This document shows positions 7,127-58,730 of a DNA stretch of 64,000 nucleotides, piece after piece. The notes under the pieces were generated by a model. That model was not told the origin of the DNA and ran no database searches. It worked only from the letters and a program-made list of their open reading frames with translations. The DNA lies in IMG/VR virus record IMGVR_UViG_3300010397_000042, positions 1 to 64,000 of that record; one strand, written 5' to 3'. This stretch comes from a virus. The translations under genes and the position numbers were made by a program. Position 1 is the stretch's first letter; every line of letters starts with the position of its first letter.

Positions 7127-7475
7127 CTTTACGATCAACCGCGGTGACACAACGGAGTGGAAGCTCACCGCTCGCAAAGACGGCGTAGCCATCGATCTGA
7201 CTGGTGGTCAGGTCTTCATGGCGGTTCGACGCAACTACGCGTCACCATTGCTATTTCAACGGACGAGTGCTGAGGACGGCGGCATCACGATCGACGATGG
7301 TACCGGTGGTACCGCGACGATCGAGCTCAAACCCGAGGACACCCTCAACCTAGCTAATGACGTTCTTTCGGTGGTCTATTCCATCCACGTCGTCACGGCT
7401 GCTGGCAAGCAGTACACCGTCAAACGGGGCACCCTCGAAATCGATCCGATTGCGTGGGATGGTGAAACACTCTGA
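7119..7475 (+). CDS. BppU-like baseplate or fibre-anchor protein
   Basis: A 118-residue protein. The N-terminal FTINRGDTTEWKLTARKDG and IDLTG strands match the N-terminal domain common in baseplate upper proteins (BppU-like). ATG at 7119 is preferred over the TTG at 7113. Likely structural and out of place among lysis genes. The promoter that follows overlaps its stop codon. Confidence 0.6.
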   Translation: MSDFTINRGDTTEWKLTARKDGVAIDLTGGQVFMAVRRNYASPLLFQRTSAEDGGITIDDGTGGTATIELKPEDTLNLANDVLSVVYSIHVVTAAGKQYTVKRGTLEIDPIAWDGETL

Positions 7476-7491
7476 GTTTTTGTGCTATAGT
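7462..7491 (+). promoter_or_regulatory. Phage promoter, ACTCTGAG family
   Basis: -35 GTGAAA fused to CACTCTGAG, 18 bp, -10 TATAGT with an extended TGC. Drives the phosphoesterase gene. The TGA of the upstream gene (7473-7475) lies inside the conserved block. Confidence 0.7.
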
Positions 7492-7511
7492 TCAAGGATA
7501 GTGGAGGATCC

Positions 7512-8333
7512 TTGGACAAAGGCAAAATACATGTGGTCATCGGCGACACCCAAGTCAAAGAGGGCGTACCGACCAACCATCTTTCTTGGATAGGGCAGTA
7601 CATCGTCGACCACTTTGCGGAGTGGCAACCTGACCTCAGTATCATACATACCGGCGACCATGCCGACATGCCGTCACTCAGTTCTTACGACAAGGGTAAG
7701 AAGGAGATGGAGGGCAGGCGTTACAAGGCAGATGTCCGAGCGTCCAACAACGGCTGGGACCTACTGAACGAACCGCTCTACGACTACAACAAGAAGCGCC
7801 GTAAGCCATGGGAGCCCAAGCGATTCATCACTCTTGGGAATCACGAGTATCGAATCAACAAGGCCTGCGAAGACACCGCTCAGTTGGACGGTGTCATCTC
7901 CACGGACGACTTGAACTACAAGGAGTGGGGATGGGAAGTGATTCCATTTCTCGAGATCCTCGACTTGGACGGTATCTGGTACAGCCACTACTTCTATAAC
8001 CCGCAAACCGGCAAACCGTACGGCGGTGCAAACCTTTACACGCGTCTCCAGACCATCGGGCATTCGTTCACGATGGGTCATCAACAAGGATTGAAGGTTG
8101 CGAGTCGCGAGGTCGGTAAGACCCGGCATTGCGGTCTCGTTCTAGGATCCACGTATCTTCACGATGAGAAGTACTTGGGCCCTCAGGGAAATGCGTATTG
8201 GCGAGGAATCGTTGTCTGCCATCAGGTCGAAAACGGTGCCTACGACAGGATGGAAGTCAGTCTCGATTTCTTATGCAGACGTTATGAGGGGAAGACCCTC
8301 TCGGAGTTTATGCGAGGAGTAGTAGCAGCATGA
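7512..8333 (+). CDS. Calcineurin-like metallophosphoesterase
   Basis: A 273-residue metallophosphoesterase with the five-part metal-binding signature: GDTQ near residue 11, TGDHADM near 48, LGNHEY near 111, and two late His clusters (IGHSF-GHQ and TYLHDEK). It would hydrolyse phosphomono- or diesters with two metal ions; nucleic-acid ends or cyclic phosphates are possible. TTG start at 7512, chosen because GGAGG sits 5 bp upstream. It has its own promoter and begins a three-gene unit with the trypsin-like lipoprotein. Confidence 0.8.
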   Translation: MDKGKIHVVIGDTQVKEGVPTNHLSWIGQYIVDHFAEWQPDLSIIHTGDHADMPSLSSYDKGKKEMEGRRYKADVRASNNGWDLLNEPLYDYNKKRRKPWEPKRFITLGNHEYRINKACEDTAQLDGVISTDDLNYKEWGWEVIPFLEILDLDGIWYSHYFYNPQTGKPYGGANLYTRLQTIGHSFTMGHQQGLKVASREVGKTRHCGLVLGSTYLHDEKYLGPQGNAYWRGIVVCHQVENGAYDRMEVSLDFLCRRYEGKTLSEFMRGVVAA

Positions 8334-9040
8334 AGTTAGGTCTTATCTTTGCGTTCGTTCTTTCTTTGGCAGCATGTGTCACGCCATTAGACGTGGTTCC
8401 ACCGTCCGTTTCAAAGGCTCCTGTCTCGAAGGAGCAATCGGCTTTCAGTCTCAGATCAAAGACGGTAGCTCTGGTCCGGGGCACCGATGATGGTCCGGCA
8501 CCTTTTTGCACCGGGGTCTGGGTTACGCCGAGCACATTCCTGACCGCGCAGCACTGCGTCGACGAAGATAAGATGGGAGGGGTGTTCGTTTACACCTCCG
8601 AGAGTGACGTCTTCGGAAAGGGCGATCCTCATCCGAAGGCCAACATTCAAGTGCGACTAGCTTCACTAAAGAAGGTCGATGCGATTCACGACCTGGCGCT
8701 GCTGCATGCTCCCGATCCTCCCGAACAACACGGCATCGTCGAGACGGTGGCTAGCCGAGTTACCGCCGGTCAATTCGTTCAGACCATGGGGCACTCGATC
8801 GGACTCTGGTACAGCTACTCAAGCGGTGACGTAAGCGCGGTCCGATGGATCGATGCTGGTGACGGCAGCATGATGTACGTCCAGACCACCGTTCCAACCA
8901 GTCCGGGTAACAGCGGTGGTGGACTCTTCAACGAGAACCTCGAGCTCGTCGGGCTCTGTCACGGCACGGTGAAGCACGGTCAGAACATCAGCTTCTACGT
9001 TCACGCGCAGCACATCGCCGAGTTCTTGAAGGATAAATGA
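8330..9040 (+). CDS. Trypsin-like serine protease lipoprotein
   Basis: A 236-residue protein with a lipoprotein signal (LSLAAC, Cys16) and a complete S1-type triad: His75 in TAQHC, Asp121 in HDLALL, Ser195 in SPGNSGGG. Probably lipid-anchored in the outer or inner membrane and active outside the cytoplasm. The start overlaps the phosphoesterase stop. No PDZ domain follows, so it is not HtrA-like in full. Such exported proteases could act in lysis, superinfection exclusion or as lysogenic conversion factors; which one is not shown by sequence. Confidence 0.85.
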   Translation: MKLGLIFAFVLSLAACVTPLDVVPPSVSKAPVSKEQSAFSLRSKTVALVRGTDDGPAPFCTGVWVTPSTFLTAQHCVDEDKMGGVFVYTSESDVFGKGDPHPKANIQVRLASLKKVDAIHDLALLHAPDPPEQHGIVETVASRVTAGQFVQTMGHSIGLWYSYSSGDVSAVRWIDAGDGSMMYVQTTVPTSPGNSGGGLFNENLELVGLCHGTVKHGQNISFYVHAQHIAEFLKDK

Positions 9041-9216
9041 CGCCCGAGCAGTTCTGCTACTGGCTCCAAGGCTTCTTCGAGATGACCGGCGACAAGGCCA
9101 AGCTGTCGCCCGAGCAGGTCAAGATGGTCCGAGATCACCTTGCCATCGTCTTCAAAAAGGTGACGCCACCGCTCAAAACTGTCCGTCCATCAAGGTGGGA
9201 CGGGAAGCTCTGTTGA
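9037..9216 (+). CDS. Conserved small phage protein (59 aa)
   Basis: ATG overlapping the protease TGA. It starts MTPEQFCYWLQGFFEM and continues LSPEQVKMVRDHLAIVFKKVTP, a pattern I recognise from many phage genomes without a known function. Helical, probably cytoplasmic. Confidence 0.75.
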   Translation: MTPEQFCYWLQGFFEMTGDKAKLSPEQVKMVRDHLAIVFKKVTPPLKTVRPSRWDGKLC

Positions 9217-9262
9217 TTCGAACTCCGCGAGGTTTCCTCCTCCCTCGTGTTGAGTTCCTGGG

Positions 9263-9289
9263 ACCCCGGGGCCGAAAGGCTACCGGGGT
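9263..9289 (+). terminator. GC-rich hairpin, possible terminator
   Basis: ACCCCGG pairs with CCGGGGT around an inner GCC/GGC with a GAAA loop; followed by TTTCGGTCTTT, a weak T-run. Could end the late transcript, or shape the leader of the next gene. Confidence 0.4.
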
Positions 9290-9316
9290 TTCGGTCTTTG
9301 GAGGCGAAAGAAAACT

Positions 9317-9580
9317 ATGAGTACGTACGTCTATCCGTGTCATGTATGCGGCGAGGATCTGAGTCCCGGGTACTTCCACTACAAGATCGAAGTGAAAGGA
9401 AAGGTCGAGATGATCCACATCCCCTGTCTATCGAAGCTGGATCAAAATTCGATCACGTTGGTCCGCTACCGTGAGGGAGAAAACTCAACCCCGGACTCAA
9501 CCCCTGCTCAACCTCACGGGACGAAAACAGCGGGAACAGCGAAGGCAGTGAAGAGCCTTCGGAGCGACGAAACCCCCTAA
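9317..9580 (+). CDS. Small zinc-ribbon-like protein (87 aa)
   Basis: Good ribosome site GGAGG 12 bp before the ATG. Cys pairs CHVC and a downstream Cys (IPCLS) suggest a small zinc-binding N-terminal part; the C-terminal third is low-complexity Ser/Thr/Pro. Last plus-strand gene before the strand switch. Confidence 0.6.
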   Translation: MSTYVYPCHVCGEDLSPGYFHYKIEVKGKVEMIHIPCLSKLDQNSITLVRYREGENSTPDSTPAQPHGTKTAGTAKAVKSLRSDETP

Positions 9581-9643
9581 ATTCGGTGCCCAGAGACGGA
9601 ATCGAACCGCCGACACGGGGATTTTCAATCCTAAATTCAGTGC
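9576..9643. repeat. Direct repeats flanking the tRNA-Phe segment
   Basis: CCTAAATTCGGTGC (9576-9589) and CCTAAATTCAGTGC (9630-9643), 13 of 14 identical, 54 bp apart, one at each edge of the tRNA-like core. Possibly recombinase arm or exchange-related sites. Confidence 0.5.
9585..9631 (-). other. attP: Probable attP core: 3' half of a tRNA-Phe gene
   Basis: Read on the minus strand, this gives an anticodon loop TTGAAAA (anticodon GAA) with the complete 3' side of a bacterial tRNA-Phe: TCCCCGTGTC, T-arm GGCGG-TTCGATT-CCGTC, acceptor ...GGGCACC. The 5' half (acceptor, D-arm, 5' side of the anticodon stem) is not preserved beyond GGA. Conservation only from the anticodon loop to the 3' end is the usual form of an attP core matching a tRNA attB. 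An integrase gene lies 3.3 kb away and its operon reads towards this site. A decayed phage tRNA is the alternative. Confidence 0.6.
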
Positions 9644-9703
9644 ACCGATTCCAGCTAAAATGGCCGGAAAATGGCCACATTCAGTCTGGACTCACCCCCG
9701 GCT

Positions 9704-9901
9704 CTACCTCGACTTCCGAAGCGCATCTGCGATGCTGACGGCTTTTCCACCCCAGTTGAGCGCCAGGTTTTCCGCATGCACTCGACTGAACACTTCGGGT
9801 TCATCCGTATGCGTCCAGTGATAGCCGAGGCGCCCGCTTGTAAGACGCATCCCGTTACAGCGGTGCACGATGATCCAGGAGCCGTACTGATTCTTTCTCA
9901 C
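9704..9901 (-). CDS. Hypothetical protein (65 aa), last gene of the integrase operon
   Basis: GTG at 9901 chosen because GGAGGT lies 6 bp upstream; the longer frame to 9982 has no such site. Contains a DEPEVFSRVHAENLALNW stretch and basic N-terminus. No known domain. Confidence 0.6.
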   Translation of the reverse strand: MRKNQYGSWIIVHRCNGMRLTSGRLGYHWTHTDEPEVFSRVHAENLALNWGGKAVSIADALRKSR

Positions 9902-10018
9902 GGCTCTACCTCCAGATGCACCAAAACGCCGTACCAGGCCAGTCGTGCATTTCCACGCGGAGCTCGCTATAAGGATCGCCACGAAACGTCATATGCCATC
10001 GAAAATGGTGAACGCAGG

Positions 10019-10207
10019 TCATTCGAGCTCCTCGAGTTCGTCGATCGGGAGCCACTGCCAGCCGCAGGGTGTACCGAAGAAGGCCATCGGTTCGTCGTCG
10101 ATGATCTCCAGCTTGGTGACGGTGCCTTCCATGTCCTCCAGGGCGGCGATGAAACAGTAGCGTTTGTGGCTCTCCGCGGTGGGACGTACGCGACTACCGA
10201 TCTTCAT
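10019..10207 (-). CDS. Small hypothetical protein (62 aa)
   Basis: ATG overlaps the stop of the upstream gene. An SH3-like beta pattern (GSRVRP...GTVTKL) with an acidic C-terminal tail (IDELEELE). Unknown function. Confidence 0.65.
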   Translation of the reverse strand: MKIGSRVRPTAESHKRYCFIAALEDMEGTVTKLEIIDDEPMAFFGTPCGWQWLPIDELEELE

Positions 10208-10389
10208 TCCGAGTCCCCTCTCTGAACGAGGCGAAACATGCCTGCGGGTGCATAGTGGCGATCGCCAGCGTTGATGATCCCATCGGCGGAGATCTCTTTG
10301 ACGATCGTGATCTCGTCTGTCCAAGCTCGGCGATGTCGACGGACTACTAGATCGCCCAGCTTCGGTTCTTCACCTGTAGAGTACTTCAC
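10204..10389 (-). CDS. Small hypothetical protein (61 aa)
   Basis: GTG start overlapping the previous gene's TGA. The GDLVVRR...ITIVKEI pattern resembles the small beta-barrel proteins common in phages. No function can be named. Confidence 0.65.
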   Translation of the reverse strand: MKYSTGEEPKLGDLVVRRHRRAWTDEITIVKEISADGIINAGDRHYAPAGMFRLVQRGDSE

Positions 10390-12728: not shown

Positions 12729-12916
12729 CGGGGGATGATCCTCCCTTTGGTGATGTTCATCTTCTCGTCGAGCTCGAACTCGAGCGATGCGTACTCTCCG
12801 TACTCGAACCACTTCTCATCTTCTTCCTCGGACATGCCGAAGTGGTCGATAACCTCGTTCCACATGTCCGGGTCTTTGATGTCCTCGAGTACAACCTTGA
12901 TCGTCTTCTTCTTCAT
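12725..12916 (-). CDS. Small acidic protein (63 aa)
   Basis: Starts MKKKTIKVVLEDIKD, then strongly acidic. The small, coupled gene immediately downstream of the integrase could be a modulator, but nothing in the sequence shows it. Confidence 0.6.
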   Translation of the reverse strand: MKKKTIKVVLEDIKDPDMWNEVIDHFGMSEEEDEKWFEYGEYASLEFELDEKMNITKGRIIPR

Positions 12917-14154
12917 ACAGCCCTCAAGTGCCTCGGCTTAGGTACCTTCTCGAGCACCGCTTCAATCAACGGGGAGACGTCCGAGGCCTTCCTCTTCCCG
13001 TAGACCTGTTTCAACATTCGATCGTCTGAGTGTCCCATCAGCGGGTACGCAAGCTCGTAGGGGACGCCTGCCTGCATCAGCCATTGGGCAAATGTGCGGC
13101 GTAGGTCGGTTGGGCAGAAAGGCTCGAACACCGGAACCTTCTTGCACTCGGGACACTTCGGATCCCGACATGGCGTTCCCATGGTCTGAGAGGTGCCCCG
13201 AACCAAGCTGTTACCGCTCCTCCACCAGAGATTCTTGCTCTGCTCGCAGTCCTTGCACATCGACAGGTAAGCGCAGGCGATCAGGATGTCGCGTCTTACG
13301 TTGCCCCACGCGGCGAAGAGTGAGTCGTTCTTCCCGTCGGCGTTCCGCATGGCCCGCTCAAACAGGTGACGGCGATCGCTGGGGACGATGAACGTTCGAT
13401 CTCGGAGCTCGCGCTTCGTACCTCGGATGTGAACCTCGAACGTCTCCATGTTCATCTCAGATCGCTTGGAGTGCGCCACCTCGCTCGGGTAGGTCGATCC
13501 GGTCGAGACGATGAAGTCCAAGACACCGCCCTTCGCTGCCGATCGGTTCGCGTACCACCATCGCATAAACCGGTCGTACTCCTCTCGAGTCAGCCACCGT
13601 TCTCTAGGTACATAGAGAGCCTGGAAGTCTTCCGGCTTCATCTCGGTGACGGAGCCGCAACTCACTCCGTCCCGCTTCGCCATCTTCATCGCCATACTCA
13701 GGGCGGTGAGCTCCTTCCCGATGGTGTTGCCTTTGGTTCCCTCGTCGGTTCGCTGCTGAATGTACTGTCGTATCGTTTCTGGAGTGATCCCAGATAGGAG
13801 TAGATTCGGTCCCAATACACGGACAAGGACACCGCTCTTTTTCTCGTAGAACTTGATCGTGTCTTCCGCGAGCTTCTTTCGGGAGGGGTCATTGTTCTTA
13901 CGATTGCTCTTCAACCATTCGATCCGGTTGAGGAGAGCGGTGTTGAGGGTGCGCTCCTTTTTCTCGGAGCCGTCCACAGGATTCTTTCGGACCCGCTCGA
14001 GGTAGACGCGGTGGGCGGCGACATCGTCGCGCTGTCCGGTGCTCTCTCGGATGTGCCGTCCCCCCTTCGGATTCGGGAGCTGCATCCACCAGATCGTCGA
14101 GCCCGGGTACTTGAAGAGCTCTGGGTAGCGCTGATGCCGGATGTAGCCTGACAT
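12913..14154 (-). CDS. int: Tyrosine recombinase (integrase) with altered active site and zinc insert
   Basis: A 413-residue integrase. N-terminal arm-binding region (MSGYIRHQRYPELFKYPGST), SAM-like core, then the catalytic domain. Box I reads TGSTYPSEVAHSKRSEMN, where the usual TGxRxSE Arg is absent. The beta-hairpin Lys is present (RGTKRELRDRTF), box II reads LRRTFAQW with Arg but not the usual HxLR His, and MGHSDDRMLKQVYGK supplies box III His and the nucleophile Tyr. Between the hairpin and box II is an insert with two Cys clusters (CKDC, CRDPKCPEC), a probable zinc finger. ATG at 14154 follows AAGGAG. Recombines attP and attB if still active. Confidence 0.75.
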   Translation of the reverse strand: MSGYIRHQRYPELFKYPGSTIWWMQLPNPKGGRHIRESTGQRDDVAAHRVYLERVRKNPVDGSEKKERTLNTALLNRIEWLKSNRKNNDPSRKKLAEDTIKFYEKKSGVLVRVLGPNLLLSGITPETIRQYIQQRTDEGTKGNTIGKELTALSMAMKMAKRDGVSCGSVTEMKPEDFQALYVPRERWLTREEYDRFMRWWYANRSAAKGGVLDFIVSTGSTYPSEVAHSKRSEMNMETFEVHIRGTKRELRDRTFIVPSDRRHLFERAMRNADGKNDSLFAAWGNVRRDILIACAYLSMCKDCEQSKNLWWRSGNSLVRGTSQTMGTPCRDPKCPECKKVPVFEPFCPTDLRRTFAQWLMQAGVPYELAYPLMGHSDDRMLKQVYGKRKASDVSPLIEAVLEKVPKPRHLRAV

Positions 14155-14395: not shown

Positions 14396-14490
14396 GGTGA
14401 TTCGGCAGGACTCGAACCTGCACCTGGTGTTGCGTCTGCCAATTGCGCGCGGATCTCGTTAGCAAGACGAGTCCGTCACCCACGAATCAC
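14396..14490 (-). tRNA. tRNA-like element with abnormal arm order
   Basis: Perfect 8-bp acceptor GTGATTCG/CGAATCAC and a perfect T-arm GCAGG-TTCGAGT-CCTGC. The interior is odd: a 5-bp stem with 7-nt loop (CTCGT-CTTGCTA-ACGAG) precedes a D-arm-like GCG-CAATTGGCAGA-CGC, and position 37 of the loop would be T. No CCA is encoded. It could be a class II tRNA with a shrunken D-arm and long variable arm, or a decayed tRNA. Amino-acid identity is not assigned. Confidence 0.4.
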
Positions 14491-14566
14491 TCAGTATCGA
14501 ATCCGATCCAGTGAGCACCAGTGCCTCGATACCTCTGGACGTCGCTGCTCAATCGCTAAGTCCATA

Positions 14567-14639
14567 GGACAGATCGCGGACTCGAACCGCTGCCGAAGGA
14601 GGGCGACTCCCCGTTCAGAACCCCTCTGATCAATCTGTC
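14567..14639 (-). tRNA. tRNA-like element with a 7-bp acceptor and T-arm
   Basis: Acceptor GACAGAT/ATCTGTC is perfect and the T-arm is GCGG-TTCGAGT-CCGC. A D-arm-like TCAGA/TCTGA stem and a GGGGA/TCCTT stem enclosing GTCGCCC fill the middle. The loop nucleotide at 37 would be C and no CCA is encoded, so a functional identity (nominal anticodon CGC) is doubtful. Confidence 0.4.
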
Positions 14640-14701
14640 AAAAAGGGGCGACCTCTCCGTCACCCTCCACCACGCCAATCAAGTACCATTACCCAATTAG
14701 C

Positions 14702-15044
14702 GGTGGACAAGTCGGGAATCGAACCCGAGTCCGAAAAACATCCTCATTCCCTTCATTCACGTGCGTAGCCTCTGTTGTAGCCAGAGGCAGCATTCATGAC
14801 GGTCTACGTCGGTGTCATGCAGACGACCCTGAAACAACCACGACTCGGGTCATCCGTGGCGATTGCCCTATAGGTTTACCCTGGAGCGATACTAGGGCGA
14901 TATGTGCTCCAGAGTCCTCACTCAGGCCGCAGCCTGGAGCTCGGGGATTGCGTTATCGTTCGCAGTTACGTTTCCCGATTGAAGAGGTCGGGGCTCTTGC
15001 ACGCAGAGTCTGATTCCATTCTCCGTCGAAACCATTGCTTGCCC
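14702..15044 (-). ncRNA. ssrA: tmRNA (transfer-messenger RNA)
   Basis: The 5' end GGGCAAGCAATGGTTTCGAC carries the conserved GGTTTCGACGG segment, and the 3' end has TTTTTCGGACTCGGG and a TTCGATT T-loop ending in GTCCACC. The termini pair GGGCAAG with CTTGTCC (7 bp, one G-U). The tag frame starts at a GCG codon at 14963 after CGTAACT and reads ANDNAIPELQAAA then TGA at 14922-14924. Length is about 343 nt before CCA completion (final A not encoded). It rescues stalled ribosomes and tags nascent proteins for proteolysis. Phage-encoded tmRNA is known but uncommon. Confidence 0.9.
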
Positions 15045-17787: not shown

Positions 17788-17816
17788 ATTATAGTCCGAA
17801 CCTCAGAGTGTGTCAA
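17788..17816 (-). promoter_or_regulatory. Phage promoter for the recombination operon
   Basis: -35 TTGACA in TTGACACACTCTGAG, 17 bp, -10 TATAAT. Divergent from the promoter at 18023 across about 200 bp in which I see no convincing gene. Confidence 0.88.
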
Positions 17817-18022
17817 GTAGAGTTGCAAAGAAACTGAGAGTGTGCTAGATTTCAAGTGTGCTTTACGAGACAGAGTGGAGAGGGAAGGTCTATCAGTACC
17901 GGACGCACGGCAGCTCAGCGTGTCTCTCTATAGATGGACAAAACATCTGGTGGGGCAAGACCGGTCAGCCGTTGCCGTGTCGGATAGCACCGCTGATTGT
18001 GATACTGACTTTGTCCCTCGCA

Positions 18023-30118: not shown

Positions 30119-30148
30119 CTTTTGCCTCATGAAATAGTCTGGGACAGT

Positions 30149-30177
30149 TTGACACACGCTGTCTCCCATGGTATACT
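30149..30177 (+). promoter_or_regulatory. Phage promoter before the VRR-NUC gene
   Basis: -35 TTGACA in TTGACACACGCTGTC, 17 bp, -10 TATACT with extended TGG. Conserved block is more diverged than in other copies. Confidence 0.75.
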
Positions 30178-30740: not shown

Positions 30741-30882
30741 AGACGAGAAAATTGACTTACTTATCGAGCTCTTCGGATGGGACAACTCGGAGCTCTCCCG
30801 ATACTCGGCTCTGAGATTGCTTAGACTGGCACGAAAGGAACCAGTTCCTGCTTATGATGACTTCCTCGTACACCGGTATTGA
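30733..30882 (+). CDS. Small acidic helical protein (49 aa)
   Basis: ATG inside the end of the previous gene, the frame running into the next gene's start. No domain. Confidence 0.5.
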   Translation: MTEDEKIDLLIELFGWDNSELSRYSALRLLRLARKEPVPAYDDFLVHRY

Positions 30883-31249
30883 ACAAGCGGAGAGGGCGTT
30901 CGGTTGCAAACTTAGCTACCGAAAAGAACCGGGTGGCGCGGACCGACTAGACGATCTCGCCCAAGCTTGGATCGATGGCGACCGCAAACGAGTGCGAGAA
31001 TATGTGCTACACTATGAGAAGGAGAAAAGGAGAGGATGGAATACAGGTTCGCGGAACAGCAAGAAGCGCTTAGAGGCGCGACGGACCCGGAGGGTCCTCC
31101 GGTTACGGTCTGGGGGTCTTACAACCCGCCAAATAGCAAAACGGTTGAAGGTGAGTCAAAGGACAGTGTTTCGGATCCTGTCGACCATCCGCGACACTAC
31201 AACGTGCACCCCAGCGGTGTTGAGTGCATCACCGTTACCAAGCACATGA
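30854..31249 (+). CDS. HTH DNA-binding protein (131 aa)
   Basis: A clear HTH of the HTH_23/28 type at about residues 85-115 (GLTTRQIAKRLKVSQRTVFRIL) after an Arg-rich segment. Its second half overlaps the DUF3310 gene's N-terminal part by 214 bp in a different frame. Possible regulator. Confidence 0.55.
   Translation: MMTSSYTGIEQAERAFGCKLSYRKEPGGADRLDDLAQAWIDGDRKRVREYVLHYEKEKRRGWNTGSRNSKKRLEARRTRRVLRLRSGGLTTRQIAKRLKVSQRTVFRILSTIRDTTTCTPAVLSASPLPST
31005..31013 (+). promoter_or_regulatory. Extended -10 element before the DUF3310 gene
   Basis: TGC-TACACT with no good -35; followed by AAGGAG and the ATG at 31036. Internal to the HTH gene. Confidence 0.4.
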
Positions 31250-45675: not shown

Positions 45676-46737
45676 TTATGCTGCGCTCTTCACGCTATCC
45701 CATTGTTCGGGAGTCATGGCGCTGGCCATGGTCATCTCCTCAACCGTGCTTTGATCCAGACCTTGGGACAGCAGGTCCGCGCCATCGAACGATGCACGTG
45801 GTGTAACGAGCACGCGCAACCCCTTGGACATAACAGCCTTGCGGATCGCCTGCACACGCTTAGTCCACGTCATGTTGGGCGCAACAGCCAATTCCAGATC
45901 CAGATCGTACGGCCACGCGACGCGAACGAACCGATCCAGAAACGCGCCGTCCAGCTTGTTTCGGCCCACGTACTCATGGGTAGCGCCATGCCCCCATGTG
46001 TTGGCCGCAGCGATGATCACGCAATCGGGGTGACGCGTAACCATACCATCGGGGAAGGCTGCTACGCCGTTTGCCAAGAGGGCATTGAACGCAACGAGCG
46101 CGGTGGGATCGGATCCGTCGACCTCATCCCACAAGAACACCCCACCATGTTCGTATGCCTCACGCAACATGGTGCGCTTATAGTTCCCGTTCGCGTCAAT
46201 GAAGCCTAGGAGAGCGTAGGGATCCGAGACTGCACCCGTGTAGTAGAATTTCAAGCCGAGGGCTTTCGCCACGTTCTCAGCAGCGGTGGTCTTGCCCGAT
46301 CCTGCAGGACCTGCAACCCATGCGTTACGCTTGCGCGTGTTGCAAGCGGCGAGCAAGCGGGGAAAATGCTTGTGCTGTAGGCCTACGTCGATCGTGCTCA
46401 GATCCGGCCGAACCACGTTGATCGTGACGGCCTTGATCGAGCTCATGGCTTGCTGGATTGACTCCAGATCAAGCCGTTCCTCGATCATGGGGTAGAGTAC
46501 TTCTGCGAGGCTTTCGAGCGCGTTGGAGTGAGCCTTGGGCGTTTCGGTAGATGAGGTATTGACCTGCATGTTCTCGGACGTTTCACCGCCCCATTTCCCC
46601 CTGCGGGTCCACGAAATCATATCGCCCGCGTGAATGCGATCCGAGCACAAGTCGCACGGACCATCAAACTTTGCAGGAAACGCGCGCTTGACTGATTTGC
46701 CGTTCTTTTCTTCCCAGCACTTGGCATGAAATGGCAT
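45676..46737 (-). CDS. MoxR/CbbQ-type AAA+ ATPase
   Basis: A 353-residue AAA+ protein: Walker A GPAGSGKTT, Walker B VFLWDEVD, sensor 1 AANTWG, arginine-finger region LDGAFLDRFV. N-terminal ~50 residues include a CDLC zinc-like motif. MoxR ATPases remodel partner complexes, often with a VWA protein, which is encoded two genes downstream. Good SD AGGAGAG and a 42-nt leader. Confidence 0.8.
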   Translation of the reverse strand: MPFHAKCWEEKNGKSVKRAFPAKFDGPCDLCSDRIHAGDMISWTRRGKWGGETSENMQVNTSSTETPKAHSNALESLAEVLYPMIEERLDLESIQQAMSSIKAVTINVVRPDLSTIDVGLQHKHFPRLLAACNTRKRNAWVAGPAGSGKTTAAENVAKALGLKFYYTGAVSDPYALLGFIDANGNYKRTMLREAYEHGGVFLWDEVDGSDPTALVAFNALLANGVAAFPDGMVTRHPDCVIIAAANTWGHGATHEYVGRNKLDGAFLDRFVRVAWPYDLDLELAVAPNMTWTKRVQAIRKAVMSKGLRVLVTPRASFDGADLLSQGLDQSTVEEMTMASAMTPEQWDSVKSAA

Positions 46738-46779
46738 GGTCTCTCTCCTGTTTTACGTCTGTTCCGACGCTCGTGATTA

Positions 46780-46808
46780 TGTGTAGCGCGAATCTAAGAG
46801 TCTGTCAA
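46780..46808 (-). promoter_or_regulatory. Phage promoter for the MoxR operon
   Basis: -35 TTGACA in TTGACAGACTCTTAG, 17 bp, -10 TACACA; leader of about 35 nt. Confidence 0.8.
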
Positions 46809-46859
46809 TCAATTATCTATCGATCGAGGTTACACGTGGGTGCGCGTGTTTCCCTACAT

Positions 46860-47000
46860 TTATTTCACTTGAATCGAACAACACCAACCTGGTTGCCAGC
46901 GCCAGTGTGTCCCGCATACTGGACACGTCCAATTCGGTCCTTTGCGCTTGGTCGTGCAGACATCACACCAACAATCAATCCCGTGTTTGGTTTTACTCAT
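46860..47000 (-). CDS. Cys-rich zinc protein (46 aa)
   Basis: CWCDVC, CPVCGTHW and terminal CC: a small ribbon. Start shares a base with the upstream TGA (TGATG). Not the product of the upstream gene. Confidence 0.6.
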   Translation of the reverse strand: MSKTKHGIDCWCDVCTTKRKGPNWTCPVCGTHWRWQPGWCCSIQVK

Positions 47001-47224
47001 CATGTGCGTTCCTTTCGGATCACTAGCGAGCCATCGAGTGTCGCGTAGGCGACTCCACGGCAGATCCCGGTCACGTATGGCACGTCACATTTGGCGCCTT
47101 GCCAATACACGTTGCCGTCGATTTGACCTCGAACGTCATCCGTTGAGATCATGCGAATCGCTTGGATCGCTAGATCCATATTGGATAGTTCCGCAAACGA
47201 CCAAATCAGCGTGCCTTTACTCAT
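47000..47224 (-). CDS. Hypothetical protein (74 aa)
   Basis: Helical N-terminal half, beta C-terminal. Preceded by a 13-bp perfect hairpin ending 3 bp before the ATG. Confidence 0.6.
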   Translation of the reverse strand: MSKGTLIWSFAELSNMDLAIQAIRMISTDDVRGQIDGNVYWQGAKCDVPYVTGICRGVAYATLDGSLVIRKERT

Positions 47225-47227
47225 GAC

Positions 47228-47267
47228 GCCCTAAGCCTCGATCCAACGTGGGACCGAGGCTTAGGGC
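47228..47267 (-). promoter_or_regulatory. Structured hairpin abutting a start codon (copy 3)
   Basis: 13-bp perfect stem GCCCTAAGCCTCG/CGAGGCTTAGGGC with an apical TCC/GGA, loop CACGTT. Strongest of the three. Confidence 0.65.
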
Positions 47268-47284
47268 ATGAATCTCTGAGTCTA

Positions 47285-47419
47285 TCACTCTAGGATGTAG
47301 CGAGCTCGACGTGTGAGCGGTGGACGAGCGATCATGCCGCGGCTCAGCTCAGCGCGAGCACGTGCGATGATGTTGTAAACGGTCGTGAGATCAACGAGGA
47401 TTTGCTTACTTGGGTGCAT
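47285..47419 (-). CDS. Small basic protein (44 aa)
   Basis: AAGGAGG ribosome site 5 bp before the ATG. ILVDLTTVYNIIARARAELSRG then a basic tail. Unknown. Confidence 0.55.
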   Translation of the reverse strand: MHPSKQILVDLTTVYNIIARARAELSRGMIARPPLTRRARYILE

Positions 47420-47430
47420 GTGGGCCTCCT

Positions 47431-47490
47431 TCAGATGAAATGGTGTAGGACGATCGCTGCGAAACCAACGTAGGCGAGTAGGGTTCTCAT
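47431..47490 (-). CDS. 19-residue single-TM micro-ORF
   Basis: MRTLLAYVGFAAIVLHHFI. ATGA-coupled to the upstream gene and 12 bp from a -10 box. Confidence 0.4.
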   Translation of the reverse strand: MRTLLAYVGFAAIVLHHFI

Positions 47491-47693
47491 CGGGGTGTTG
47501 GGAGTATGGTGCTGTTCTCAGAGTCTGTCAATCTGTTTTTATCCGCCAGCGCGACGATCGCGATTGGGTTGTGCATGCGAGCGCGATACCAGCGGATGAA
47601 ATGCTCATGACACCGCCTGCATTGGAGCACGGTCGGTGTCACCTGATGACCCGTTGCCGGATGCGCAGGTCCGCCGCAGAAAAAACAGCTCAT
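47487..47693 (-). CDS. Zinc-binding small protein (68 aa)
   Basis: CFFCGGPAH and CRRCHEHF, paired knuckles. The C-terminal NRLTDSENSTIL is encoded by a promoter sequence. Confidence 0.6.
   Translation of the reverse strand: MSCFFCGGPAHPATGHQVTPTVLQCRRCHEHFIRWYRARMHNPIAIVALADKNRLTDSENSTILPTPR
47503..47531 (-). promoter_or_regulatory. Phage promoter inside the end of a coding region
   Basis: -35 TTGACA in TTGACAGACTCTGAG, 17 bp, -10 CATACT. Lies within the C-terminal codons of the zinc-protein gene (47487-47693). Confidence 0.8.
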
Positions 47694-47899
47694 GATACCT
47701 CCACATTGAACCATGCCGCATCGGTGCTCATGACGCGCGAGATGATGCGGGCGTACTGACTGCGATCCATCTCACGGCCGATCGTGAGTGAGAACATCTC
47801 GCACACACGACGGGCCGTTGCGATACGAGACTTCGTGGTCTCGATCGTAAACTTGTGTGCACCTTGTGTCGTGAGGATCGTGACGTTCCGGGTAGCCAT
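47690..47899 (-). CDS. Small hypothetical protein (69 aa)
   Basis: KFTIETTKSRIATARRVCEMF... helical. Predicted leaderless (6 bp between -10 and ATG). Confidence 0.65.
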   Translation of the reverse strand: MATRNVTILTTQGAHKFTIETTKSRIATARRVCEMFSLTIGREMDRSQYARIISRVMSTDAAWFNVEVS

Positions 47900-49718: not shown

Positions 49719-50054
49719 ATGGTCACCCTATCGTTCATTGTACTCGCGCTGTTCCCCATCGTGCTCCCGTCGGTACTTGCCCTCGTTGGGCTCGTCCTGC
49801 TCGTGTGCGTCCCCACGCGCTCGTTTGAGCGTGAGGAGACTGCTCTGTACGTTGCCGAACAAGCGGCACTCTGGTCGGCCGTACGGGACGCGTACAATGC
49901 GGATGCGTTAGAGCTTGGGCTCGCTGTCGTGGAAGCGCAGCACACACCTGTACCTACAGAGCCTACCATGGCGGATGCGCTCTTCGCTGGGATGGCGGTT
50001 TACAGTAGGATTAGAACTTCTAATGTCACTGTAATCGATGAGTCGAGGGCCTGA
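49719..50054 (+). CDS. Membrane-anchored protein (111 aa)
   Basis: N-terminal TM helix (residues 3-31), then a soluble Ala/Thr-rich region. Unknown. Confidence 0.6.
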   Translation: MVTLSFIVLALFPIVLPSVLALVGLVLLVCVPTRSFEREETALYVAEQAALWSAVRDAYNADALELGLAVVEAQHTPVPTEPTMADALFAGMAVYSRIRTSNVTVIDESRA

Positions 50055-55836: not shown

Positions 55837-55973
55837 AGCTTCAGAACCTCCTCAGCTTCCTCCGCGATGTCGGAGAGCTCGAGGATGATTTCTGCGGCAT
55901 CATCGCCATGCCAACTCAGATGGACCAACCTCTCCAGAATCTCTTCCATCGCTTCGTATTTCTCTCGGTTCAT
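55833..55973 (-). CDS. Acidic helical protein (46 aa or 83 aa)
   Basis: ATG at 55973 has AAGGA upstream. The frame is open to a GTG at 56084, which would add a TM segment but would run through a terminator-like hairpin. The shorter form is preferred. Confidence 0.5.
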   Translation of the reverse strand: MNREKYEAMEEILERLVHLSWHGDDAAEIILELSDIAEEAEEVLKL

Positions 55974-55984
55974 TTCGTAGTCCT

Positions 55985-56017
55985 TATAAAACGGGTCCCC
56001 GGAGCCGTAGCTCCGGG
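55985..56017 (-). terminator. Hairpin with T-run, minus strand
   Basis: CCCGGAGC/GCTCCGGG stem (8 bp) with a 4-nt loop, followed on the minus strand by CCCGTTTTAT. Intrinsic terminator or mRNA 3' end between two genes. Confidence 0.5.
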
Positions 56018-56023
56018 AAATCC

Positions 56024-56263
56024 CTAATCTGAAGAAGAGAAGAACCCATAAGGCCAAAAGAGAGACATTGAGAACCTTGTCCACGCTTGCATGACCTCGG
56101 GACTGGACTTCAGCCCCTTGAACTGCTCGAGGACTTCAGCTCCCACAAGATTCCAGACATCCTCCCAGGAATCCCATCGTCCCATCATCCAAAGAGGACA
56201 GAACCATGTGAGTACCGACAGTCCGGAATAGAAGAAGATAAGCGAAGCGATAAAGCTAACCAT
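56024..56263 (-). CDS. Membrane protein (79 aa)
   Basis: ATG at 56263 within the upstream gene's last codons (AATGGTTAG). N-terminal TM (FIASLIFFYSGLSVLTWF). Unknown. Confidence 0.55.
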   Translation of the reverse strand: MVSFIASLIFFYSGLSVLTWFCPLWMMGRWDSWEDVWNLVGAEVLEQFKGLKSSPEVMQAWTRFSMSLFWPYGFFSSSD

Positions 56264-56615
56264 TGATAAGCTCCAACAGGTCACCCATCGCCACGTCACG
56301 ATCCAAACAACGAAACTCGATCTTCAGGCCGTATTCCATCGCCGTTCGAAACGCATACCTCATCCCACCACTCACGCCTCGATCGAGATAGAACGCCACC
56401 ACGTCGGCAAACTCACGCCACGCGAATCCAGCCTGGATGCCCTGCTGTCGCTCATCAAACACCGCGTCATTGAGAATACCCTGTTGCGTGTACAGTAGAT
56501 GACTCGCAAACGGTGCTTCCTTGCGGTTGAGGCAATCCTTCATACACTTTCGAGCGTATGCGACGTTTGCCGTAACCTCGCCCTCATACGGAGATTCGAT
56601 AACTACCAGCCGCAC
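56256..56615 (-). CDS. DUF7768-like phage protein (119 aa)
   Basis: VVIESPYEGEVTANVAYAR, APFASHLLYTQQGILND and GFAWREFADVV, conserved across many phages; a Rossmann-like nucleoside-processing enzyme is a common guess. GTG at 56615 with GGAG upstream. Confidence 0.7.
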   Translation of the reverse strand: MRLVVIESPYEGEVTANVAYARKCMKDCLNRKEAPFASHLLYTQQGILNDAVFDERQQGIQAGFAWREFADVVAFYLDRGVSGGMRYAFRTAMEYGLKIEFRCLDRDVAMGDLLELING

Positions 56616-56995
56616 TTCTCGGACTCCTCGATCTCCATGTCCATGAGCTTGCGACAGAACTTGAGATCCGTTGTGCATCTGAAGTCGGTAAACTGACGAC
56701 GAGCCTCGAACTCGGCGACCGGTCCGTCGTCGTAGTGACTCAGGATGACGGCCTGGTTTGCGTTCGCCGTGACGTCGTCGGTAAGCAAGACCTTGCGGAT
56801 GTCCTCGGCGAGCTTGAGTACCTGCTCGAGACGAGCCATCTTCTCATCCTCGTTCCAGAGTTCGGAAGTCGCCCAGAGCAACATGTGTCCAAGCTGCTTC
56901 TTGAGGATTCGTGATCTCAAGTCGTGAACTTGCTGATCCTCTTCCAGCTTCAGCAACGCACCCGACCAACCCTCTACGTACTTCGGCTCAGACAT
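56603..56995 (-). CDS. Helical protein (130 aa)
   Basis: ATG at 56995. All-alpha, charged. Overlaps the next gene by 13 bp. Confidence 0.6.
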   Translation of the reverse strand: MSEPKYVEGWSGALLKLEEDQQVHDLRSRILKKQLGHMLLWATSELWNEDEKMARLEQVLKLAEDIRKVLLTDDVTANANQAVILSHYDDGPVAEFEARRQFTDFRCTTDLKFCRKLMDMEIEESEKCGW

Positions 56996-57380
56996 TCTGC
57001 TCCTCCACGAACTTCCTAATGTGAGCCGCGACCTCACGAGCGGTCGCATCCTCACCGAGTCGGCCGTCGGCGTAGTTGTTTGGAATGAAGAGCCGCAAGT
57101 ACTCACTTATTGAGAGTCCAAAGATCCTCTCTGCGACCTCTACAGCTCCGGAATTCTCGTTGTCTGCCATCCTGGGCATGACTCCTCTGAACTCGTCTGG
57201 AACCAGAGTGGCACCCAGCTTCTGGAACTCTGGCATCGAGCAAGCCCAACCCAGTGCACAAGCGGTGGTCCCGCAACCACCCTCGAACCAGTCATCGGAC
57301 GCCCAACTCGCGTAATTGAACCTCTCTGGTGGAAGATCATCCAGAAAGTCAGCCAATCTAAGCAATCGTTCTTTATTCAT
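56988..57380 (-). CDS. Conserved-type hypothetical protein (130 aa)
   Basis: CGTTACALGWACSMPEF is a motif shared by a phage family of unknown function. Coupled. Confidence 0.65.
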   Translation of the reverse strand: MNKERLLRLADFLDDLPPERFNYASWASDDWFEGGCGTTACALGWACSMPEFQKLGATLVPDEFRGVMPRMADNENSGAVEVAERIFGLSISEYLRLFIPNNYADGRLGEDATAREVAAHIRKFVEEQNV

Positions 57381-57703
57381 TCCCAGCTCCTACACGGTCC
57401 ACATCGGAACCCCTCTTTGACCTCGGCAAATTCGTTGTAGTCTCCACATTTGCTGCAAACAGCTCCGTAGACTGGAGGTGCAGCTTTGAACGTTTGAATC
57501 GTGGGCACCCCGAAGCGCCGCCACTTGTAGGCACCCCGCTGGTGATAGGTGATGTAGAAGTCCAACCCATCAAGATTCAACTTGACGTAACTTCCACTTA
57601 TTTGGGTGACAGTCCCTTCACCAAGAGGGATACCGCTGTAATCGACCTCAATGATATCGCCTACTATGAGATCCTCAGGACAGTCCCAATCAGTCATCAT
57701 CAT
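57377..57703 (-). CDS. Hypothetical protein with C-terminal zinc ribbon
   Basis: From the ATG run at 57703: SH3-like VGDIIEVDYSGIPLGEGTV, then CSKCGDYNEF...CGPCRSW. The same frame is open and strongly coding back to about 57829, where the upstream gene's N-terminal part lies in another frame, so this may be the C-terminal part of a frameshifted longer gene. Confidence 0.55.
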   Translation of the reverse strand: MMMTDWDCPEDLIVGDIIEVDYSGIPLGEGTVTQISGSYVKLNLDGLDFYITYHQRGAYKWRRFGVPTIQTFKAAPPVYGAVCSKCGDYNEFAEVKEGFRCGPCRSWE

Positions 57704-57926
57704 CTTCCTCAGGTACACTTGGTAATCCTCGATTAGCTCGCAGGCGTCGGAGAGCTCCATGGGTATTTCGAAATGCGTGGTCTCGACCTGGCCATTCACC
57801 AAGATCTCGAATTCCACCCTGGAAGTAGACGGCGTTTCGCCAGAACTCACCCTCCAGCCACACAAGTGCATAGTAATCTCCGTCCTCGAATTCATAGTTG
57901 CCTTCTCCGAGACGCTTCCAGCTCAC
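57690..57926 (-). CDS. Hypothetical gene with an apparent +1 frameshift
   Basis: Codons from 57926 to about 57830 (MSWKRLGEGNYEFEDGDYYALVW...) are clearly coding. After that the third-position GC bias moves to the +1 frame, which reads RVEFEILVNGQVETTHFEIP and runs on into the ATG at 57703. In its own frame the ORF continues to 57690, but with weaker bias. One-base change, error, or programmed shift. Confidence 0.5.
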   Translation of the reverse strand: MSWKRLGEGNYEFEDGDYYALVWLEGEFWRNAVYFQGGIRDLGEWPGRDHAFRNTHGALRRLRANRGLPSVPEEDDDD

Positions 57927-58162
57927 TTCTCAACGAGTTCTCCACTCGGCGTCACCTTGAAGTTCGCTCGAATCTTGGCTTCGGGGATAATCGTGTATCC
58001 CATCTCGTCTTCCTCGGTCACATGGTCGATGAGCCCATCGACGTCACCAGGGACCCACTCCGGGTTCTCCTCGAGAAAGTGGTAAACGTCGTCCTCTTCC
58101 TCAGCATCGACGAAGAAGGTCACTAAGCGCTCCATCACCATATCGACTCGGTAAGTGTTCAT
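57923..58162 (-). CDS. Hypothetical protein (79 aa)
   Basis: ATG at 58162, 7 bp from the -10, predicted leaderless. FVDAEEEDDVYHFLEENPEW, acidic. Unknown. Confidence 0.6.
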   Translation of the reverse strand: MNTYRVDMVMERLVTFFVDAEEEDDVYHFLEENPEWVPGDVDGLIDHVTEEDEMGYTIIPEAKIRANFKVTPSGELVEK

Positions 58163-58169
58163 AGTCTGT

Positions 58170-58198
58170 ATTCTAGCACTAAACTCAGAGTGTGTCAA
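58170..58198 (-). promoter_or_regulatory. Phage promoter, leaderless type
   Basis: -35 TTGACA in TTGACACACTCTGAG, 17 bp, -10 TAGAAT, 7 bp to ATG. Confidence 0.85.
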
Positions 58199-58239
58199 AC
58201 GGTTTCAAAAGAAAAGGCGCCACTACCGACGCCTGTTCT

Positions 58240-58695
58240 TCAGAGGACGAAGTACCGTCCCTCGATCTTGGTGATCACGCCACGAGACTTGAGCTCATCG
58301 AGGGCCGAATACAACCGATCGCGGTGTTGCTGGTCGTCGAGCCCGTAGAGCTTACGAACGAGCACACCGTTGTCGATGTGGCCATTGCCCTCTTTGATGG
58401 CTTGGATGATGAGTTTCTGGACACGACTCGAGCCGCGAGGCTTGTTCCTAGGGGGTCCAGCATTACGGATAAGCCCAAGGTTTTCGAGATCGTCCCAAAG
58501 ATTCAAGGACTTGATCTCTCGGTTGATGGTGCTGAGGCTAACCTCGAGGGCTTCCGCAGCCTCTTCGCGGTTTCCATCATGCTTCTTCATCGTATCAAGG
58601 ATGAGCTTTCGGCGCTCTTCCTCTGTGAATCTGCGTCGCATTCCACTTCCTGCGGGTTCAGATTGGAATTTCTTAGCTCCCGCCCTGTTCTTCAT
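58240..58695 (-). CDS. HTH/winged-helix transcription regulator
   Basis: A 151-residue protein. A Fis-type HTH near residues 30-60 (NREEAAEALEVSLSTINREI) is followed by a winged-helix-like domain (VQKLIIQAIKEGNGHIDNGVLVRKLYGLDDQ...SALDELKSRGVITK). Predicted leaderless from its own motif promoter, so possibly autoregulated. A candidate regulator of the promoter family. Confidence 0.7.
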   Translation of the reverse strand: MKNRAGAKKFQSEPAGSGMRRRFTEEERRKLILDTMKKHDGNREEAAEALEVSLSTINREIKSLNLWDDLENLGLIRNAGPPRNKPRGSSRVQKLIIQAIKEGNGHIDNGVLVRKLYGLDDQQHRDRLYSALDELKSRGVITKIEGRYFVL

Positions 58696-58702
58696 GAGCT
58701 CT

Positions 58703-58730
58703 ATTTTAGGACAATTTGAGAGTATGTCAA
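58703..58730 (-). promoter_or_regulatory. Phage promoter, leaderless type
   Basis: -35 TTGACA in TTGACATACTCTCAA, 16 bp, -10 TAAAAT, 7 bp to ATG. Confidence 0.8.

What the first reader, a model, noticed from the sequence alone, without database searches (positions are those of the whole stretch)
7462..58730. About 19 copies of one promoter with a conserved block fused to the -35
Copies of TTGACA-[C/T/G]-ACTCT-[G/A/T]-AG sit before genes at 7.5, 15.6, 17.8, 18.0, 22.3, 30.1, 39.0, 42.6, 45.4, 46.8, 47.5, 47.9, 48.6, 48.9, 49.3, 49.5, 49.7, 58.2 and 58.7 kb. Most have a 16-18 bp spacer and a TATAAT-like -10. Sigma70 does not need the ACTCTnAG extension, so its conservation on both strands suggests a second protein reads it. 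Mycobacteriophage L5 is a precedent: its repressor binds many dispersed sites that overlap a -35 (stoperators). This may be an equivalent in an unrelated phage.
Basis: partly seen in the sequence, partly recalled or inferred. Interest (0 to 1): 0.88.

Follow-up and report, generated by a model that had tools for sequence, protein, structure and literature searches.

The report
Phage-wide switch sites fused to promoters
A tailed phage carries about 35 copies of one short, one-directional DNA signal, roughly half of them built into its promoters and the rest mostly in gaps between genes, which looks like the set of docking sites that a single phage repressor would use to silence the whole genome, as in some mycobacterium phages.

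Summary
In the 89-kb phage record a 14-15-bp asymmetric site, about TGAyAnACTCTnAG, occurs 36 times at >=15 bits (mean 0.7, maximum 3, in 30 Markov shuffles). There are two classes: 19 sites with a sigma70-type promoter (3 of them weak), many before a leaderless ATG, and 17 without a usable -10, mostly in short gene gaps. The next called gene is on the site's own strand for 34 of 36. Outside promoters the purely -35 letters (T1, C5) are mostly lost while the rest stays, so something besides sigma70 reads the site. Stoperator-type sites of a Cluster A mycobacteriophage (Naca), found by the same method, have the same polarity and form (TTGACA-n-block), but no Cluster A repressor homologue was detected here. 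Best reading: operators plus stoperators of one phage-encoded repressor, perhaps of lysogeny. The protein is not identified; candidates are P0002 (58240-58695), P0003 (60866-61234), ORF 30854-31249 and a recombinase-like protein with lost catalytic residues (12913-14154). No close relative was found, so conservation across phages is untested.

The parts
17802..17816 (-). site with promoter (TTGACA-17-TATAAT)
   Evidence: 25.0 bits
18023..18037 (+). site with promoter (TATACT, spacer 17), divergent from 17802-17816
   Evidence: 25.4 bits
15648..15662 (-). site with promoter (TATACT), overlaps stop of exonuclease-like gene, before SSB gene
   Evidence: 21.1 bits
22260..22274 (+). site with promoter (TATAAT), overlaps TGA stop of DNA polymerase gene
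   Evidence: 20.3 bits
7462..7476 (+). site with promoter (GTGAAA, spacer 18, TATAGT)
   Evidence: 21.5 bits
39018..39032 (-). site with promoter, ATG 5 nt after the -10
   Evidence: 22.5 bits
42568..42582 (-). site with promoter, ATG 6 nt after the -10
   Evidence: 23.8 bits
45394..45408 (-). site with weak promoter (TACACC), ATG 6 nt after
   Evidence: 23.2 bits
46794..46808 (-). site with weak promoter (TACACA)
   Evidence: 25.4 bits
47517..47531 (-). site with promoter (CATACT)
   Evidence: 26.3 bits
47920..47934 (-). site with promoter (CATACT), ATG 6 nt after
   Evidence: 23.5 bits
48604..48618 (-). site with promoter (TACACT), ATG 7 nt after
   Evidence: 15.9 bits
48926..48940 (+). site with promoter (CATACT), ATG 6 nt after
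   Evidence: 21.0 bits
49265..49279 (+). site with weak promoter (CATGCT, spacer 18), ATG 6 nt after
   Evidence: 23.6 bits
49499..49513 (+). site with promoter (TATAGT), ATG 6 nt after
   Evidence: 22.5 bits
58184..58198 (-). site with promoter, ATG 7 nt after; just downstream of candidate repressor gene
   Evidence: 24.5 bits
58716..58730 (-). site in P0002's own promoter (TAAAAT, spacer 16), ATG 7 nt after
   Evidence: 22.5 bits
3492..3506 (+). site, possible promoter (TTGATA, spacer 18, CATACT)
   Evidence: 21.0 bits
3329..3343 (+). site without -10, overlaps stop of tail-fibre-like gene
   Evidence: 21.0 bits
4661..4675 (+). weak site without -10 at a called gene start
   Evidence: 15.8 bits
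23217..23231 (+). site without full -10, inside methyltransferase-like gene, same direction
   Evidence: 23.0 bits
27167..27181 (+). site without -10 in the short gap after the ribonucleotide reductase gene
   Evidence: 15.4 bits
31004..31018 (+). site without -10 just before the DUF3310 gene
   Evidence: 17.8 bits
31352..31366 (+). site without -10 at a gene junction
   Evidence: 17.6 bits
31580..31594 (+). site without -10 in a short gene gap
   Evidence: 22.1 bits
40851..40865 (-). weak site without -10
   Evidence: 15.2 bits
43946..43960 (-). weak site inside a called gene, same direction
   Evidence: 17.0 bits
47274..47288 (-). site without -10
   Evidence: 19.1 bits
49689..49703 (+). site without -10 in register, overlaps upstream TGA stop
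   Evidence: 22.2 bits
50960..50974 (-). weak site without -10
   Evidence: 16.8 bits
59014..59028 (+). site classed as non-promoter (GTGCTA at -35; AATATT at spacer 17), in a gene gap
   Evidence: 18.3 bits
63484..63498 (+). site without usable promoter between terminase large subunit and portal genes
   Evidence: 17.1 bits
58240..58695 (-). P0002, first-choice candidate reader protein: Fis-like HTH plus C-terminal winged-helix-like segment; own promoter carries the site
   Evidence: Pfam HTH_8 1.2e-6; secondary structure of a low-confidence model
60866..61234 (+). P0003, candidate: two HTH segments in 122 aa; apparent CTG start
   Evidence: Pfam HTH_17 1.5e-7 at 76-111, HTH_23/HTH_28 3-4e-5 at 7-34
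12913..14154 (-). P0001, tyrosine-recombinase-like protein lacking Arg-I and the HxxR histidine; integrase or MrpR-like candidate
   Evidence: PF00589 2.6e-7; alignment A1
30854..31249 (+).
   Evidence: HTH_23 6e-7; best match of any open frame to the Cluster A repressor profile, HTH part only

Best explanation
The sites are the binding sites of one phage-encoded DNA-binding protein, most likely a repressor. At promoters the site covers the -35 and the first 9 bp of the spacer, so binding would block RNA polymerase. In gene gaps the same site, in the same direction, would stop elongating polymerase (stoperator). Together they would hold the whole genome silent, most plausibly in lysogeny. Shown by sequence: the repeated asymmetric site, its two classes, its direction, and its independence from the -35. 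Inferred: that a protein binds it, that it represses, that it stops elongation, and the lysogenic role.
For: Site statistics. A matrix trained only on 15 exact-TTGACA sites (13 with a good -10, 2 with a weak one) finds 11 more sites >=12 bits, 7 of them in the non-promoter class, 0 antisense and 7 within 60 nt of a called start; 200 column-permuted matrices gave means of 1.64 sites and 0.08 near a start (maxima 7 and 1). At 10 bits it is 16 sites, 9 near a start and 1 antisense, against 4.04, 0.28 and 1.74. T1 and C5 of the -35 are present at 18 and 17 of 19 promoter sites but at 3 and 4 of 17 others (Fisher 3e-6 and 1e-4; counts taken by hand, tested); A6 is present in 36 of 36. The next called gene is on the same strand for 34 of 36. 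In Naca the same word count finds CG.TGTCAAG first, and CTTGACA.CG is in the direction of its genome arm in 15 of 15. Cluster A repressor genes have a site in their own upstream region and sites downstream (PMC6550527, passages); P0002 has the same layout.
Against: No protein is shown to bind. No relative was found in which to test conservation. The only recombinase found lacks two catalytic residues, so temperate life is not certain. P0002 has no match in the phage collection at E <= 1, its single-sequence model is poor (pLDDT 49.7), and hhalign against the Cluster A repressor profile gives 0.6% for it, against 70% (HTH only) for ORF 30854-31249. The promoter class was partly defined by having <=2 mismatches in the -35, which biases the T1/C5 contrast a little (only 59021 was excluded by that rule alone). 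Lytic phages T1 and Stevie also have asymmetric, co-oriented, mostly intergenic repeats of unknown role (PMC4319613, passage).
Confidence: 0.66

Rival explanations
1. The sites serve the lytic cycle only: a phage protein made early switches off (or activates) all early promoters later in infection; the gap sites tune operons, as may be true of the T1-type repeats of unknown role.
For: T1 and Stevie precedents; the recombinase looks catalytically damaged; many promoters with the site precede small genes without a Pfam match.
Against: Sites also lie in the head/tail gene region (63491, 74541, 86196, 3336), which an early shut-off would not need to block. Near-consensus -35/-10 elements do not need an activator (inference).
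Confidence: 0.16
2. The block is simply part of the host's own sigma70-type promoters (extended -35/spacer).
For: 13 of 14 exact-TTGACA promoter-like hits (-10 <=2 mismatches with A2 and T6 fixed, spacer 16-18) carry the site at >=15 bits.
Against: 17 sites have no usable promoter and mostly lose T1 and C5. Of 17 promoter-like hits with one mismatch in the -35 only 2 carry the site; 12 of the other 15 lie in called genes and may be chance. A promoter-form pattern has 2 matches in genome contigs and 41 in viral contigs; across those 41 whole records none has more than 2 sites at <=1 mismatch, against 17 here. The host genome itself may be absent from these collections.
Confidence: 0.08
3. The reader is the tyrosine-recombinase-like protein P0001, a repressor that lost recombinase activity, like MrpR of SPbeta with its SPBRE sites.
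For: P0001 aligns along its length with D3-type integrases (24% identity) but has TGSTYPSE where they have TGCRREE, and TDLR for HDLR; MrpR also lost the Arg and His residues and keeps Lys and Tyr (PMC10516654, passages); no site >=9 bits lies between 7469 and 15655, where P0001 and its upstream region lie.
Against: A small HTH_17 (excisionase-type) frame lies directly upstream (E 0.001, below Pfam's cut-off), an int-xis-like arrangement beside a tmRNA gene, which fits an ordinary integrase; it is the only recombinase found.
Confidence: 0.1
4. The gap sites act as RNA (processing, antitermination or translation signals) rather than as DNA.
For: They lie close to stops, ribosome-binding sites and starts and nearly all are co-oriented.
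Against: The promoter copies lie upstream of their own start of transcription, so the transcript of that promoter does not contain them (sequence).
Confidence: 0.04

Closest known systems
Operator/stoperator system of Cluster A actinobacteriophages (L5, Bxb1, TipsytheTRex; Naca tested here)
   Same: Asymmetric 13-14-bp site, dozens of copies across the genome, in the direction of transcription, at promoters and in short gene gaps (PMC9283540, PMC6550527, PMC3029335, passages); TTGACA at the 5' end followed by a specificity block (Naca, SWU2).
   Different: No homologue of the Cluster A repressor detected; here about half of the sites have a promoter, against 0 of 15 Naca sites with a -10 of <=2 mismatches; most non-promoter sites here do not keep TTGACA, whereas the Naca and SWU2 counts used TTGACA in the search pattern itself.
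MrpR (YopR)/SPBRE of Bacillus phage SPbeta
   Same: Repeated element at many promoters of one prophage bound by a master repressor (PMC10516654, passages); P0001 shows a similar loss of catalytic residues.
   Different: Ten ChAP-seq peaks, in promoter regions; site sequence not compared here; no evidence that P0001 is the repressor.
Streptomyces phage R4-type repressor-stoperator system
   Same: Repressor acts at an early promoter and at many sites across the genome (PMC10276819, passages).
   Different: Site sequence and repressor not compared here.
Repeats of phages Stevie (22 bp, 16 copies) and T1 (20 copies); Nostoc phage A-1/N-1 motifs
   Same: Asymmetric, mostly intergenic repeats (PMC4319613, PMC4916379, one passage each).
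   Different: T1 and Stevie are lytic; the Nostoc motifs are not consistently in the direction of the genes; no -35 within the site is described in the passages seen.

Membership tests
Cluster A operator/stoperator system | Many copies of one short asymmetric site across the genome | tested here: met
   36 sites >=15 bits vs mean 0.7, maximum 3, in 30 Markov shuffles; 40 >11 bits vs 2-8 in 20 shuffles
Cluster A operator/stoperator system | Sites oriented with transcription | tested here: met
   next called gene on the same strand for 34 of 36; controls by genome arm 15 of 15 Naca, 8 of 8 SWU2
Cluster A operator/stoperator system | Sites both at promoters and in gene gaps | tested here: met
   16 strict promoters, 3 weaker, 17 without; 4 of 36 deep inside called genes
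Cluster A operator/stoperator system | Homologous repressor (HTH plus Stoperator domain) | tested here: not met
   profile of 8 repressors vs all open frames >=40 codons of the record: best E 0.4 (the 30854 frame), HTH part only in hhalign (70%); SWU2 ORF70 control 6e-41
Cluster A operator/stoperator system | Repressor binding blocks initiation and elongation | not testable with these tools
   needs footprinting and reporters
MrpR/SPBRE type | Master repressor is a tyrosine recombinase fold that lost catalysis | tested here: inconclusive
   P0001 lacks Arg-I and the HxxR His in the alignment; fold model too poor; binding untested; xis-like frame upstream
MrpR/SPBRE type | Repeated element lies in promoter regions | tested here: inconclusive
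   19 of 36 sites have a promoter, 17 do not
Plain sigma70 promoter family | Conserved letters explained by -35 and -10 alone | tested here: not met
   block kept where -35 letters and -10 are absent

The most novel reading that the evidence does not exclude
A phage unrelated to the Cluster A phages, with a non-homologous repressor (a two-HTH protein or a catalytically dead recombinase), has independently arrived at the same design: an asymmetric site that begins with the -35 hexamer, continues into a specificity block, and is used in one direction both as operator on a battery of leaderless promoters and as elongation stop in gene gaps.
Probability: 0.4. Interest if true: 0.66.

Novelty: new variant of a known kind. 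Interest (0 to 1): 0.52.

Why it matters
Stoperator-type silencing is best known from one phage group and its relatives, with the Streptomyces R4 group beside it. A further, non-homologous case with the same polarity and the same -35-first layout would show that this is a recurring solution, and would give an independent system for asking how a one-sided bound protein stops RNA polymerase. It also gives a simple sequence test (non-promoter copies lose T1 and C5 of the -35 but keep the rest) for finding such networks in uncultured phages.

Tried and rejected
Relatives: megablast of 20 kb in phages found nothing. Viral-contig scans with P0002 and capsid found no relative; RNR gave 3 loci (32%), terminase 9 loci (26-40%), primase-helicase 1 partial locus (29%). 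None of these 13 loci holds a site above 15 bits. The integrase in genome contigs found nothing.

Motif scans: the promoter-form pattern in viral contigs gave 41 stretches with one match each. Within the stretches the most was 3 matrix hits >15 bits (L047), six stretches having 2 or 3. I then searched the 41 whole records at <=1 mismatch: 38 have one match, 3 have two. I treat these as chance or single promoters. The variant with GCTATA in genome contigs gave 2 stretches, one before a PadR-like gene in an acidobacterial MAG and one in a Methanosarcinales MAG ('PadR-like' is my reading of the translation); in their whole genomes 1 and 3 matches at <=1 mismatch, against 0 and 2 for the reversed control.

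The nearest capsid relative in the phage collection, MW202476 (36%), shares four head genes and three short weak hits, holds no site, and its top repeated word is a tandem repeat, 21 of 22 copies in one array. MW202701 (first 50 kb) has no site either.

Controls that did not go fully my way: in SWU2 the stoperator-like word was not the top word (GGGGGCCT was); its 8 sites were listed with a pattern chosen after seeing the words. Its ORF70 matches the solved repressor over residues 129-207 only. Gene direction in Naca and SWU2 was taken by genome arm. That both are Cluster A is recalled.

Single-sequence structure predictions were too poor to use: P0002 pLDDT 49.7, P0001 37.3; no fold search was run.

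A matrix of the block letters (with A6) alone separates weakly: at >=9 bits 67 further sites against 59.6 expected; at >=11 bits 29 against 10.7. So the whole site is the unit. Thresholds of 9, 11, 13 and 15 bits were tried; 15 was used for the final table. The matrix behind the 36 sites was refined on the same genome; one search is the independent test. My gene calls are home-made and certainly miss or misplace some genes; the 49728-49862 call that makes site 49696 look misdirected is probably one such error. An earlier count said '15 of 16 exact TTGACA promoters carry the block'; the recount is 13 of 14.

Full report
What the window is. The window is bases 1-64000 of an 89,011-base virus record. 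It is a tailed phage, with tail sheath and baseplate genes outside the window, terminase and replication genes, a tmRNA gene, a class II-type ribonucleotide reductase, and one tyrosine-recombinase-like gene; no resolvase-type recombinase was found. The host is unknown. Genes were called with a home-made codon-bias script.

The observation. TTGACANACTCTNAG with up to three mismatches occurs 39 times in the window against 15.7 expected, and with up to one mismatch 17 times in the record against one for the reversed pattern. A count of gapped words of 14 shapes ranks TTGACA.ACTC first, 14 against 0.12 expected. A weight matrix refined on the record finds 40 sites above 11 bits, where 20 Markov-shuffled genomes gave 2 to 8, and 36 at 15 bits, where 30 gave 0 to 3, mean 0.7.

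Two classes. Sixteen of 36 sites have a -10 with at most two mismatches (A2 and T6 fixed), spacer 16-18, and at most two mismatches in the -35; three more (45401, 46801, 49272) have a weaker -10; 17 have none usable (these numbers give the first base of the block). The spacer is 17 in 13 of the 16. In 10 of the 16 a start codon of an open frame of at least 30 codons follows 4-9 nt after the -10, eight of them ATG at 5-7 nt, so the start codon would be near the transcription start: leaderless messages (inference). The non-promoter copies sit mostly in short gaps between genes read in the same direction, including between terminase and portal (63491), after the tail-fibre-like gene (3336), and at 74541 and 86196 outside the window. 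At several the upstream stop codon overlaps the TGA of the site. Of the 36, four lie deep inside called genes although those stretches make up 76% of the record (binomial 2e-16), and the next called gene in the site's direction is on the same strand for 34; one exception, 26031, is antisense within the reductase gene and probably chance, the other (49696) is probably a gene-calling error.

Independence from the -35. A matrix trained only on 15 exact-TTGACA sites finds 11 further sites at 12 bits or more, seven of them non-promoter, none antisense and seven within 60 nt of a called start; 200 column-permuted matrices gave on average 1.64 sites (maximum 7) and 0.08 near a start (maximum 1). At 10 bits one of 16 is antisense. 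The letters that only a -35 needs, T1 and C5, are present in 18 and 17 of 19 promoter sites but in 3 and 4 of 17 others (Fisher 3e-6 and 1e-4; with the strict promoter rule, 15 and 14 of 16 against 6 and 7 of 20, 1e-4 and 2e-3). A6 is present in all 36, T2 in 32 and G3 in 35. The promoter class was itself limited to two mismatches in the -35, which affects one site (59021). Two readers therefore probably act on these sites: sigma70 at promoters and something else at all of them. The block letters alone are at best about three-fold enriched, so the whole site is the unit.

Is it a general promoter feature? Of 14 exact-TTGACA promoter-like hits in the record 13 carry the site; of 17 with one mismatch in the -35 two do. 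The promoter-form pattern gives 41 stretches in viral contigs and its GCTATA variant 2 in genome contigs. In the 41 whole records no more than two sites at one mismatch occur, against 17 here. So the network was not seen elsewhere in these collections.

Comparison with known stoperators. In Naca, which has an annotated repressor, the top word is CG.TGTCAAG (15 against 0.81). Read as CTTGACA.CG, 15 of 15 copies lie in the direction of their genome arm and none has a -10 of at most two mismatches at 16-18 bp. In SWU2, whose ORF70 matches the solved TipsytheTRex immunity repressor over its C-terminal part, CTTGACAC.G is in arm direction in 8 of 8, though there the word was not the top one. So the form TTGACA-n-block and the polarity agree with this phage. 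PMC3029335 (passages) gives the L5 and Bxb1 consensus sites, PMC9283540 (passages) the two-domain monomer on an asymmetric site, and PMC6550527 (passages and one section) the site upstream of the repressor gene and stoperators downstream of it. The differences are that about half of the sites here have a promoter and that no Cluster A repressor homologue was detected: a profile of eight repressors finds nothing better than E 0.4 in any open frame of 40 codons or more, while it finds SWU2 ORF70 at 6e-41.

Who reads the site. P0002 (58240-58695) has a Fis-like HTH (Pfam HTH_8 1.2e-6) and, by secondary structure of a poor model, a C-terminal winged-helix-like part. Its own promoter carries a site (58723) and another site follows the gene (58191), the layout of Cluster A repressor genes; but hhalign against the Cluster A profile gives it 0.6%. 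P0003 (60866-61234) has two HTH segments but lies just upstream of the terminase genes (1.7%). ORF 30854-31249 has the best match to the profile (70%, HTH only) but overlaps the DUF3310 gene. P0001 (12913-14154) is a tyrosine-recombinase-like protein in which the first catalytic arginine and the histidine of HxxR are replaced, as in MrpR of SPbeta. A weak HTH_17 frame upstream speaks for an ordinary integrase module. None is shown to bind.

How it most likely works. A repressor would bind 14-15 bp from the -35 into the spacer, shutting the early promoters, and would stand in the path of polymerase in gene gaps, in one orientation. Steps shown here: sites, classes, direction, independence from the -35. 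Steps inferred: binding, repression, elongation stop, lysogenic role.

Limits. No close relative was found in the searches made, and records very near this one may be left out of them, so conservation across phages was not tested. That this site is not described in print rests on one full-text search for three site strings, which listed four unrelated papers, and on passages of seven of the papers met.

Noticed in passing
window 9588-9660 (-), 14396-14500 (-), 14559-14640 (-): Three tRNA-like stretches with a matching acceptor stem and a standard T arm but, by eye, no normal D arm. ARAGORN reports no tRNA; Rfam gives weak tRNA-Sec matches (E 0.05 and 0.16, below its gathering score) at the first two and nothing at the third.
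   Followed up: partly
window 14702-15044 (-): Complete tmRNA gene with tag ANDNAIPELQAAA, near the recombinase gene; could mark the integration site or help find the host.
   Followed up: no
window 12913-14154 (-): Recombinase-like protein with replaced catalytic residues and a cysteine-rich insert, zinc-ribbon-like by eye, before the second Arg motif.
   Followed up: partly
window 30129-30175 (+): The exact-TTGACA promoter without the block; an imperfect inverted repeat (GGGACAG ... CTGTCTCCC, by eye) straddles its -35, which may suit a different regulator.
   Followed up: no
window 17834-17848 (-): A second block copy (CTAGCACACTCTCAG) lies 32 bp upstream of the 17.8-kb site; it is not among the matrix hits.
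   Followed up: no
window 60866 (+): Gene with two HTH segments appears to start at CTG, overlapping the upstream stop (CTGA) after a GGAGG.
   Followed up: no
L078 46853-47187: Phage MW202476 has a long 12-bp tandem repeat (AGCCTCnGGAGC) within the stretch 46595-47872 annotated as one gene.
   Followed up: no
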